Assembly: GCA_025934735.1 (NCBI GenBank)
Contig: JAICWP010000012.1
Location: forward strand, 62,001-126,000
Source: Terriglobales bacterium
Lineage (GTDB): Bacteria > Acidobacteriota > Terriglobia > Terriglobales > Acidobacteriaceae
Direction of reading: 5' to 3'
DNA length: 64,000 nucleotides
A program made the position numbers and the translations under genes. Under the pieces are notes generated by a model, which did no database searches, had not been told where the DNA came from, and saw only the letters and a program-made list of their open reading frames with translations. Shown one piece after another: positions 54,811 through 61,421 of this stretch (positions are counted from its first letter, which is position 1; each line of letters starts with the position of its first letter).

Positions 54811-54887
54811 GGCGGTGTAGCTCAGGTGGTTAGAGCGACGGTCTCATAATCCGTAGGTCGAAGGTTCGAGTCCTTCCGCCGCCACCA
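54811..54887 (+). tRNA. tRNA-Met (anticodon CAU), probable integration site
   Basis: A 77-base cloverleaf with acceptor GGCGGTG/CGCCGCC (one G-U), anticodon loop CTCATAA giving CAU, T-arm GAAGGTTCGAGTCCTTC and encoded CCA. It could be elongator tRNA-Met or the CAU tRNA-Ile (lysidine type); the sequence alone does not decide. The integrase gene 218 bases downstream, pointing at it, suggests its 3' end is the attachment site of the element to the right. Confidence 0.93.
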
Positions 54888-54902
54888 ACTCATTCAAAGG
54901 AA

Positions 54903-56572: not shown

Positions 56573-56818
56573 TTACTGGAGTAACCGCGCAGGTTGGGCG
56601 TGTTTGCGGTTGCTGGCGCGCGATCCATTCCCAGGGCAGCAGTGGTGCCGATCCCACCAGCTCTGCAGCTCAGCACAATCCCACTCATAGCGCCTGATCC
56701 GGCCAATTCTCTTGTGCGGGATGGGATCAGCCTTAGATCGCGTCTGATCCATCACCCAGCGTTTCGTCACCTTCCATCGCTGGGCAAGTTCTTCGGCGGT
56801 AAGGATTTCGCAAGTCAT
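56573..56818 (-). CDS. Excisionase/AlpA-like helix-turn-helix protein
   Basis: 81 residues. The N-terminal 60 form a MerR-like winged HTH of the Xis/AlpA kind: ILTAEELAQRWKVTKRWVMD, then IPHKRIGRIRRYEWDCAELQSWW. The tail is basic. Located just upstream of the integrase on the same strand, it fits a recombination directionality factor that bends the arm sites and controls excision. It could also be a repressor. Confidence 0.8.
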   Translation of the reverse strand: MTCEILTAEELAQRWKVTKRWVMDQTRSKADPIPHKRIGRIRRYEWDCAELQSWWDRHHCCPGNGSRASNRKHAQPARLLQ

Positions 56819-58586: not shown

Positions 58587-59054
58587 CTATGTCTTGGAGA
58601 CGTTGAGCTGCGGAGCGAAGACTAACTCCCGCTTCTTCAACGCTGTGTCTGAAAAGTACATTTGCAGCTCCATCGTCTCAGAACTCTGCTCTATCGCCTC
58701 ACTTTCTAATCTCAGGGCTTTCTCTTTTACCTCAGTGAGGTAAGCCATCACGCCCGAATCGCATGGAAATAAAAAGTTGGCCTGCTCTATTGCCTCTTGA
58801 AATTTGCACAAATCGTCAATTAAGTTGAACACTCCATCGGTTCGCAAGACAACGTTGATGAACTCCTCTGTTGCACGATAGACCGCGAACCGTTTGTCGA
58901 ACAGCGCAAGTCTGAGCTGCAGCTCTCGCTGTTTGTGTCCAAGTCGTAACGACACAACCACAGCAATTACCGCCGTTGCCGCTGAAATTGAAGAAATCAG
59001 TGTTGCGACATGCGCGCTCGTTGGAAGATAGCTTGCCAGGTCGCTCAGTACCAT
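58587..59054 (-). CDS. Membrane-anchored helical protein, third gene of the HIRAN operon
   Basis: 155 residues. One membrane helix at about 18-42 (LISSISAATAVIAVVVSL) precedes a long, charged helical region (RLGHKQRELQLRLALFDKRF, shortened: HKQRELQLRLALFDKRF; TEVKEKALRLESEAIEQSSE). The 'helix plus KR...FDKRF.VY' layout recalls small membrane proteins called hypothetical in many islands. GGAGGAG is 8 bases before the ATG, and the gene overlaps the HIRAN gene by 10 bases, so they are one operon. Confidence 0.75.
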   Translation of the reverse strand: MVLSDLASYLPTSAHVATLISSISAATAVIAVVVSLRLGHKQRELQLRLALFDKRFAVYRATEEFINVVLRTDGVFNLIDDLCKFQEAIEQANFLFPCDSGVMAYLTEVKEKALRLESEAIEQSSETMELQMYFSDTALKKRELVFAPQLNVSKT

Positions 59055-59485
59055 CCCAAAATTCTCCTCCACCACGACGCCTGTGCTCGTCGCTGTGCTC
59101 GCTCCTGCTCCAATCTCTGCTCCTGCTTCGCCAGCCGCTCTTCCGTCTTCCGGCTCATGGTCAGCACATCGAAGCGCAGATTCACGCCGTAACTCCGCGT
59201 CCCCGGTTGGTGATTGATCGATCCCAGCGTCACCCGGTACGTCCAGCCTGAGTCGATGTCGCCCATTATCCGGCTGTTCTGGCCGCTCTCCAGGTAACCA
59301 AGCTGCGTGCCATCCGCCCGGCACACACGCACTGCATCAGGATCGTAGCGATTGTCAGGTTCAGGGATCAACACAATCGGCTCGCCCACGCGGCAGTGCT
59401 CACGGATGATCTTCTGTCGGCTGGTGCCATCGGCGTTGTGGTGGGTGACGCCAACAACATGCAGATAGAAAGTTCGCCTGATCAT
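59045..59485 (-). CDS. Stand-alone HIRAN-domain protein
   Basis: 146 residues. The HIRAN domain (about 5-105) shows LHVVGVTHHNADGTSRQKII, VLIPEPDNRYDPDAVRVCRA (shortened: EPDNRYDPDAVRV) and GTQLGYLES. HIRAN domains occur in HLTF/Rad5-type helicases, where they bind single-stranded 3' DNA ends and stalled forks. Here there is no helicase; the rest is a charged coiled coil (EERLAKQEQRLEQERAQRRA) and a Trp-rich end (WWRRILGWY), perhaps membrane-touching. The ATG overlaps the upstream stop (ATGA). Role unknown; DNA-damage sensing is inference. Confidence 0.85.
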   Translation of the reverse strand: MIRRTFYLHVVGVTHHNADGTSRQKIIREHCRVGEPIVLIPEPDNRYDPDAVRVCRADGTQLGYLESGQNSRIMGDIDSGWTYRVTLGSINHQPGTRSYGVNLRFDVLTMSRKTEERLAKQEQRLEQERAQRRAQASWWRRILGWY

Positions 59486-59844
59486 TGGCCGTGCAGCGCC
59501 TTCAGCAGTGTCACGATCTGTGGCACCCACTTCGATGTGAGAGCGAAAATGGCGAGCACGATGAACGCGAGCTGTATCTGCCAGGCGAGTGAGTGGAACC
59601 AGCGGAACGCTTTGACTGCTTGCAGCCCGACCAGCTTCCATGCTGCTCCGACCTTCTGCTTCCACCCGGCCCACGTCTGATTCTCATACAACGCACAGTT
59701 CGCCGGGCAGCTCACCACTTTGTACCTGCCCAGGTAGTTGATCAGGATTTCTCGCTGTGCGGCCCTGTCGCCGTAGGCCTCAATTTCCCACTTCCAACAG
59801 TCCTGTTCACACCAGGGCAGAAACAGCACCCGCATGGAATACAT
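59482..59844 (-). CDS. Cys-rich single-helix membrane protein, first gene of the HIRAN operon
   Basis: 120 residues. The N-terminal ~60 have WCEQDCWKWE and VVSCPANCALYE, two Cys pairs that may bind metal or form disulphides. One membrane helix follows near 87-108 (IQLAFIVLAIFALTSKWV). The start is uncertain: ATG 59844, ATG 59835 or TTG 59880 are in frame and none has a good ribosome site. The stop overlaps the HIRAN start by 4 bases. Confidence 0.62.
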   Translation of the reverse strand: MYSMRVLFLPWCEQDCWKWEIEAYGDRAAQREILINYLGRYKVVSCPANCALYENQTWAGWKQKVGAAWKLVGLQAVKAFRWFHSLAWQIQLAFIVLAIFALTSKWVPQIVTLLKALHGQ

Positions 59845-60196
59845 GCTGCCGGTGCCAAGCTGGTGCCGCACCTGTTTCAAATGGCCGCAACGTCGAAACT
59901 CTCCTGATCGCTTCTGGCCTTCGATCCAGTGTTTGACTTACGTGGCGCTGCAGATGTTGACCGTGGTGTCCTTCACTTCTGCCATGTGTTGGACTGAGCG
60001 TAGCAACCGCGAGCCGCAGCCGGGAGTACCTCATCAGTTAATAGAGGCCCGGCCCCGGCGCGATTCAATCTTCTCCTCGCCAGGCGTGCGATTCAGGAGC
60101 TACTATTTTCGGTAGTAGCGGTGCGCTTCACCCGGCCCGGCGAATTGCTCCCCGCGCTCACGCCCATGCTCACTCGCCCGGCTGCGCGTTTTTCTT
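59845..60196. other. Gene-free stretch upstream of the HIRAN operon
   Basis: About 350 bases. Frames on both strands are short and Arg/Ser-rich. It should contain the operon promoter, but no convincing -35/-10 pair was found. Confidence 0.4.
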
Positions 60197-61025: not shown

Positions 61026-61421
61026 ATGTCTGCCCGTCGGAAACCAGCCATTCTTGTAGTAGATGACGAACCAGGGGTTGCGACAACCCTGGCTTGGGTG
61101 CTTCAACAGTCGGGTTACCTGTCAGCAGTCGCTCACACCGGCAAAGCGGCTGTGGAAATGGCCGCAACAATGGCCGCTGATCTTGTCATCCTGGATGTGA
61201 ACCTGCCAGAGATGGACGGGCTTACGGCTGCTTCGCAGATTTGCGAGAGATTGCCTCGATGCACAATTCTGCTGATGTCCGGTGATCCAGACTCAGTTCA
61301 TGCGGTTGAGTCGTTAAGAATCGGTGAGCGCAAGATCGAAGTTCTGGCGAAGCCCTTCGAGCCGCCGGAACTGCTCGACGCGGTTGCCAGGTTGCTCCCA
61401 CCAGGTGGGCGGAAGGCGTGA
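61026..61421 (+). CDS. Single-domain response regulator
   Basis: 131 residues, a complete CheY-like receiver: acidic pair in VVDDEPG, phospho-acceptor Asp in LVILDVNLPEMDG, Thr/Ser in LLMSGDP, and Lys in VLAKPFEPPEL. No output domain. GGTGGGGA precedes the ATG. It converges on the GAF gene with a 9-base gap. No histidine kinase is nearby, so the phosphodonor is presumably elsewhere or outside the window. Confidence 0.9.
   Translation: MSARRKPAILVVDDEPGVATTLAWVLQQSGYLSAVAHTGKAAVEMAATMAADLVILDVNLPEMDGLTAASQICERLPRCTILLMSGDPDSVHAVESLRIGERKIEVLAKPFEPPELLDAVARLLPPGGRKA

What the first reader, a model, noticed from the sequence alone, without database searches (positions are those of the whole stretch)
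58587..59844. Three-gene overlapping operon around a stand-alone HIRAN protein on an integrative element
A Cys-rich single-helix membrane protein, a HIRAN protein with coiled coil and Trp-rich tail, and a membrane-anchored helical protein overlap by 4 and 10 bases. HIRAN domains sense DNA ends or stalled forks, yet no helicase or nuclease is fused. Membrane proteins coupled to a DNA-end sensor on mobile DNA is an arrangement consistent with an abortive-infection or damage-signalling device. This is the best candidate here for an undescribed system; function is inference.
Basis: partly seen in the sequence, partly recalled or inferred. Interest (0 to 1): 0.62.

Follow-up and report, generated by a model that had tools for sequence, protein, structure and literature searches.

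The report
Membrane-linked HIRAN gene on integrative element
The three overlapping genes are real, but the trio was found in no other genome searched; what does recur in close relatives is that the central DNA-end-binding (HIRAN) protein is attached to the cell membrane, which hints at a role there such as blocking incoming phage DNA.

Summary
In detail: three minus-strand ORFs (59844-59482, 59485-59045, 59054-58587) overlap by 4 and 10 bases, and the middle one is a stand-alone HIRAN protein by profile and fold. They lie on a 22.4-kb element in tRNA-Met, bounded by a 47-bp repeat whose far copy lies beyond the window; the element also encodes a SieB-type superinfection-exclusion protein. The three-gene "system" is not supported: the first gene has no credible relative, the third family occurs without HIRAN, and no other genome searched held two of the three. 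Neighbours shared between HIRAN loci are generic mobile-element genes. Coupling of HIRAN to the membrane does recur: 12 of 17 HIRAN proteins of the order and its nearest relatives carry their own predicted membrane helix, including two of the three closest, where it precedes HIRAN. Here the same order (helix gene, then HIRAN gene, joined by ATGA) looks like a split form. Outside the order no such helix was seen. Best reading: translationally coupled, membrane-docked HIRAN cargo, perhaps acting on incoming DNA. Tethering is moderately supported; function is inference. It is not a PDC-M03/HipN system. New variant of a known domain kind; moderate interest.

The parts
54811..54887 (+). tRNA-Met (CAT), integration site of the element
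   Evidence: ARAGORN
54842..54888 (+). attL: 47-bp repeat of the tRNA 3' part; its exact copy (attR) lies outside the window at window-equivalent 77227-77273 (L015:13727-13773)
   Evidence: exact repeat search on window plus contig extension
55105..56406 (-). tyrosine integrase of the element
   Evidence: Pfam Phage_integrase E 1e-7; phrog_1 E 4e-45
56573..56818 (-). excisionase-like HTH protein
   Evidence: phrog_1840 E 3e-5; HTH_17 E 0.0013, below its cut-off
59482..59844 (-). P0001: orphan protein with two CX3C pairs and one hydrophobic helix in its C-terminal third; proposed membrane anchor (ATG 59844 or 59835)
   Evidence: no family in Pfam, NCBIfam or PADLOC to E 1
59045..59485 (-). P0002: stand-alone HIRAN domain (residues about 5-110), C-terminal helix and SWWRRILGWY tail
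   Evidence: Pfam E 2e-11, AlphaFold plus Foldseek to HLTF HIRAN
58587..59054 (-). P0003: N-terminal hydrophobic helix plus helical domain; member of a rare unnamed family with the motif [LR]R[LF][AD][LV][FY][DNE][KR]R

Best explanation
The locus is cargo of a 22.4-kb tRNA-Met integrative element: a stand-alone HIRAN protein (P0002) translated in coupling with a small membrane protein upstream (P0001) and a second one downstream (P0003). I think P0001 docks the HIRAN domain at the inner membrane, doing in two chains what close relatives do in one chain with a helix fused before HIRAN. There HIRAN would bind free or single-stranded DNA ends, most likely those of DNA entering through the membrane, and hinder its establishment (exclusion of phages or rival elements), beside the SieB-type exclusion gene of the same element. 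Shown: the ORFs, overlaps, HIRAN fold, element, SieB neighbour, and recurrence of predicted membrane helices in related HIRAN proteins. Inferred: docking of P0002 by P0001, DNA binding, exclusion. P0003 is probably an independent helper or passenger.
For: 12 of 17 HIRAN proteins (15 of the order with P0002, plus L072 and L075) have a predicted membrane helix (8 N-terminal, 2 C-terminal, 1 both, 1 N-terminal in a broken frame) against 50 of 181 neighbouring ORFs, Fisher p 6e-4; rows are related and the control holds crude ORF calls. Two of the three closest relatives, L072 and L075 (50-52%), have the helix before HIRAN; the third, L063, ends in KGWFRRLFGIK where P0002 ends in SWWRRILGWY. The tree joins P0002 to these three (86/84). 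Gene order helix-then-HIRAN with an ATGA junction. HIRAN fold. HLTF Y72 and Y93 stack on a bound dinucleotide (PMC4666394, passage); the Tyr of HLTF's NPYD, which is Y93 by recalled numbering, aligns with P0002 Y47. SieB on the same element (E 6e-22). Other HIRAN loci near an integrase, a phage-type repressor, a TrwC relaxase, a distal tail gene or an AbiU2 HEPN gene.
Against: P0002 itself has no membrane helix, and no data join it to P0001. P0001 has no relative, so no conserved pairing can be shown, and its codon score is weak. The closest un-anchored relative, L063, stands without a like partner beside an FTR1 iron permease gene. Outside the order anchoring was not seen: no HIRAN ORF read in the phylum loci passed the helix cut, nor did L073 and L077, and four sphingomonad plasmid HIRANs show none by eye. 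SieB is in only 3 of 15 HIRAN genomes, in the other two about 1 Mb away or on another contig. For 7 of 12 anchored HIRANs I recognised no phage, integrase or relaxase gene near. The helix predictor is a crude hydropathy cut. No assay exists.
Confidence: 0.33

Rival explanations
1. Chance neighbours: three unrelated accessory genes packed tightly on an element, without joint function. P0002 acts alone as a small DNA-binding protein.
For: No two of the three found together in any searched genome but the window's own; neighbours shared between HIRAN loci are generic; P0003 relatives lie among other genes without HIRAN, in one viral contig overlapping an unrelated 240-aa ORF (L052).
Against: 4- and 10-base overlaps on one strand point to co-translation; the helix-before-HIRAN order matches fused relatives.
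Confidence: 0.35
2. The HIRAN protein serves the element itself: it binds stalled forks or ends during replication, excision or transfer, with the AAA_25 replication-type ATPase of the element.
For: AAA_25 ATPase on the element (E 2e-18; phrog_239 DNA primase/helicase E 1e-13); a HIRAN relative lies 1.3 kb from a TrwC relaxase gene (L068); HIRAN of HLTF acts in fork remodelling (PMC4666394, title and start of abstract).
Against: HIRAN and the ATPase lie about 11 kb apart; relatives also sit where I saw no mobile genes (L016, L017, L018, L063); a replication role does not explain the membrane helices.
Confidence: 0.17
3. A toxin-antitoxin or abortive-infection unit in which HIRAN is the regulator of a membrane toxin (P0001 or P0003).
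For: HipN antitoxins carry HIRAN (PMC8262856, passages); one HIRAN relative lies 74 bp before a HEPN_AbiU2 gene (L064).
Against: P0002 has no HipS part; no HipA-type match among 12 element ORFs scanned with PADLOC; no toxin family in P0001 or P0003.
Confidence: 0.1

Closest known systems
HIRAN domain of HLTF/Rad5 (PF08797)
   Same: Domain by profile and fold; a Tyr in the NxYD loop
   Different: No SNF2 motor, RING or nuclease fused; next to membrane-protein genes; about 17% identity in the Foldseek alignment
lp_0118 (PDB 3k2y), stand-alone bacterial HIRAN
   Same: Small stand-alone HIRAN-fold chain, highest target-normalised TM-score (up to 0.81)
   Different: Chain of only 101-109 residues, too short for the C-terminal helix and tail; named uncharacterised; its gene context was not examined
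PADLOC PDC-M03 / HipI-HipN kinase systems
   Same: P0002 matches the C-terminal HIRAN part of PDC-M03B
   Different: No HipS-like part in P0002; no PDC-M03A match among the 12 element ORFs scanned
Inner-membrane superinfection-exclusion proteins (SieA, SieB)
   Same: Small membrane proteins on integrated elements; a SieB relative lies on this very element
   Different: None of the three proteins matches SieB by profile; SieA blocks injection as a membrane protein alone (PMC10883804, passages)
phrog_27141 (phage family, function unknown)
   Same: Best PHROG match of P0002, L072 and L075
   Different: Function unknown; its members were not examined

Membership tests
HIRAN domain (PF08797) | profile score above Pfam cut-off | tested here: met
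   44 bits against 24.7
HIRAN domain (PF08797) | OB-like HIRAN fold | tested here: met
   AlphaFold model to 4xzg E 3.7e-6, 3k2y TM (target) up to 0.81
HIRAN domain (PF08797) | binding of DNA ends | not testable with these tools
   only the NxYD tyrosine is seen to align; other HLTF contacts were not checked residue by residue
PDC-M03 (HipI-HipN) | HipS-like domain before HIRAN (PDC-M03B over its whole length) | tested here: not met
   best match of P0002 covers profile positions 128-216 of 232; a full member, L042, covers 4-242 of 245
PDC-M03 (HipI-HipN) | adjacent HipA kinase (PDC-M03A) | tested here: not met
   the neighbours P0001 and P0003 match nothing in PADLOC, and of 12 element ORFs scanned only P0002 matches anything; L060 shows the true arrangement
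membrane-anchored HIRAN proteins (group described here) | membrane helix in the HIRAN protein itself | tested here: not met
   no 19-residue stretch above mean hydropathy 1.7 in P0002; the helix is in the upstream gene
conserved three-gene system | co-occurrence of the three families elsewhere | tested here: not met
   103 and 104 had no positive control in the call
SieB (PF14163) | profile match of one of the three proteins | tested here: not met
   another gene of the element matches, not these three

The most novel reading that the evidence does not exclude
Acidobacteria of this order and their phages carry an undescribed class of membrane-tethered HIRAN proteins that catch the ends of linear DNA as it enters the cell. 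The window holds a split version, with the anchor (P0001), the end-binder (P0002) and a helical partner (P0003) in a translationally coupled trio: a DNA-entry sensor or exclusion device placed at the membrane.
Probability: 0.17. Interest if true: 0.75.

Novelty: new variant of a known kind. Interest (0 to 1): 0.4.

Why it matters
HIRAN domains are known as sensors of DNA ends and stalled forks in helicases and in HipA-type modules. If a group of bacterial HIRAN proteins sits at the inner membrane, that suggests a different job, watching DNA that crosses the membrane, and gives a simple test: tether or untether one and measure phage, plasmid and transformation entry. It also shows that a tidy overlapping trio in one genome need not be a conserved system.

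Tried and rejected
Three-gene system: rejected, no second case. PDC-M03/HipN membership: rejected. Downstream gene of L070 (N-terminal helix, 4-base overlap with an anchored HIRAN) as a P0003 relative: rejected (E 68). P0003 fold: best model mean pLDDT 69, the other four 39-43, no PDB match at E 0.001 or better. P0001: nothing in plasmids or viral contigs. P0003: nothing in plasmids; one viral contig by alignment, none by single sequence. P0001 and P0003 were not sought in the phage collection. P0002: no genome contig by single sequence, 12 with a two-row alignment (I read L075, L076 and L077 and ran tblastn on L078, not the other eight); 14 sphingomonad plasmid records (five read) and one phage record. 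Further viral scans with the two-row HIRAN alignment and with the L075, L016 and L070 HIRANs found nothing. Promoter scan: no sigma-70-like site upstream of P0001 on its strand; one weak minus-strand site lies inside P0002. Papers for PDC-M03: none.

Slips: the named test of P0001 was out of frame through my wrong start coordinate; the in-frame value in the same output (ORF 59482-59880) is used. The tblastn step gave nothing and failed on a gapped query; one search is the valid run. The crude gene caller missed the L020 HIRAN gene; it was read. The P0001 protein used in searches (118 aa) begins one codon before ATG 59835.

Full report
What is there. On the minus strand, P0001 (59844 or 59835 to 59482), P0002 (59485-59045) and P0003 (59054-58587) overlap by 4 and 10 bases. 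P0002 is a HIRAN protein: Pfam E 2e-11, the only HIRAN match in the own genome at E 0.001, and its model (mean pLDDT 86) matches HLTF HIRAN (4xzg, E 3.7e-6) and lp_0118 (3k2y) best. After the domain come a long helix (112-143) and the tail SWWRRILGWY. P0001 has four Cys in two CX3C pairs and one hydrophobic helix in its C-terminal third; P0003 has one near its N-terminus and is otherwise helical in a weak model. Neither matches Pfam, NCBIfam or PADLOC to E 1.

The element. A 47-bp exact repeat of the tRNA-Met 3' part lies at 54842-54888 and at window-equivalent 77227-77273 on the same contig; an integrase and an excisionase-like HTH protein follow the tRNA. The element is about 22.4 kb and runs 13 kb past the window. 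Among its ORFs that I scanned are an AAA_25 ATPase and a SieB superinfection-exclusion relative (L015:9991-10542, E 6e-22), and zinc-ribbon, receiver, GAF and sigma-70-type proteins. I saw no capsid, tail or relaxase gene among them, but not every ORF was scanned.

The three-gene test. In 200 genomes of the order HIRAN occurs in 7, P0003 in 4, P0001 in the own genome plus one doubtful hit; the only genome in common is the window's own. In the phylum draw HIRAN is in 11 of 297 and the P0003 profile in 5 of 297, one of them weak (E 8e-4, a stop inside); again only the own genome is shared. In 17 other HIRAN genomes (8 of the order, 9 of the phylum) P0003 and P0001 gave 0 of 17 each (both answers warn that an empty result without a positive control shows little). 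P0001 was not sought in the P0003 genomes G220 and G411. At the HIRAN loci themselves tblastn at E 1 or better found neither P0001 nor P0003. An all-against-all of ORFs within 5 kb found generic sharing: an integrase (L021, L071), an HTH protein (L019, L020), receivers, sigma factors, and a shared block on sphingomonad plasmids.

What does recur. A larger draw of the order gave 17 HIRAN matches in 15 of 397 genomes. I left out one HipS-HIRAN protein (L060) and one cut by a contig end (L064), and added two close relatives found elsewhere (L072, a viral contig; L075, an Acidobacteriaceae MAG), giving 17 with P0002. Twelve have a predicted membrane helix: N-terminal in L016, L019, L020, L066, L067, L070, L072, L075 and L069 (whose frame breaks inside HIRAN), C-terminal in L017 and L018, both ends in L068. 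Five have none: P0002, L021, L063, L065, L071. Neighbouring ORFs of 100-420 aa score 50 of 181 (Fisher p 6e-4; rows are related, the control holds crude ORF calls, the predictor is a hydropathy cut). Against a general rule: no HIRAN ORF read in the loci of the phylum draw outside the order passed the cut (several are HipS-HIRAN, some have Tat-like starts), nor did L073 and L077; four sphingomonad plasmid HIRANs (L031-L033, L036) show no helix by eye (not scored), and L034 was labelled so in the tree without being scored. The tree of the HIRAN cores puts P0002 beside L072, L063 and L075 (86/84) and needs six changes among the four anchor states, where three is the least possible; only 5 of 20 inner branches are well supported, so the number of gains and losses is unsure.

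The split-form idea. L072 and L075, 50-52% identical to P0002, have the helix before HIRAN. In the window the helix is near the end of P0001, and its stop overlaps the HIRAN start (ATGA). The third close relative, L063, has no helix but a like tail (KGWFRRLFGIK). This makes membrane docking of P0002 by P0001 plausible; nothing here proves it.

Context of the relatives. With mobile genes near: L019 (integrase), L020 (phage-type repressor with S24 peptidase), L021 (integrase), L068 (TrwC relaxase), L071 (an integrase homologous to that of L021; L070 is on the same contig), L072 (distal tail protein and O-acetyltransferase). L064 lies 74 bp before a HEPN_AbiU2 gene. In L016, L017, L018, L063, L067 and L075 I recognised no mobile gene among those read, mostly by eye. 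Three neighbours of L070 matched no PHROG.

Known systems. PADLOC PDC-M03B hits of P0002 reflect the HIRAN part only; full members (L042, L060) have the HipS part, and in L060 the HipA-type PDC-M03A gene stands next door. HipN and HipL are described in PMC8262856 (passages), HIRAN-HipA clusters near diDNases in PMC11706625 (passages), a HIRAN gene in phage DLP4 in PMC6469090 (passages). SieA as an inner-membrane block of injection: PMC10883804 (passages). Searches for a membrane-anchored HIRAN in print (listings, with passages of the papers named above and of PMC11090510) showed none; PMC8195603 matched only by an author name. Only open papers are in that library, and the 2006 HIRAN survey is not among those I read.

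Verdict. Observation confirmed; three-gene device not supported; a recurring link of HIRAN to the membrane within this order supported at moderate strength; exclusion of incoming DNA is my preferred but unproven function.

Noticed in passing
L015:9991-10542 (window-equivalent 73491-74042, outside the window): SieB superinfection-exclusion relative on the same element, Pfam E 6e-22.
   Followed up: partly
L064:4276-4935: HEPN_AbiU2 gene 74 bp downstream of a HIRAN gene in another Acidobacterium.
   Followed up: partly
L037:1405-1788, L039:1489-1917: HIRAN proteins of other Acidobacteriota begin with a Tat-like signal (by eye: NRRDFLKS, TRRSLLFWM), so the domain may even be exported there.
   Followed up: no
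L070:7597-8849: Anchored HIRAN overlapping by 4 bases with a downstream gene for a protein with an N-terminal helix, unrelated to P0003.
   Followed up: partly
L068:5244-10491: Two-helix HIRAN protein about 1.3 kb from a TrwC relaxase gene, on the opposite strand.
   Followed up: no
L052:4007-5202: P0003 relative on a viral contig, overlapping a downstream 240-aa ORF of unknown family.
   Followed up: no
window 61026-61421 and 66342-66767 (window-equivalent): Two homologous stand-alone receiver-domain genes on the element, the first beside a GAF protein.
   Followed up: no
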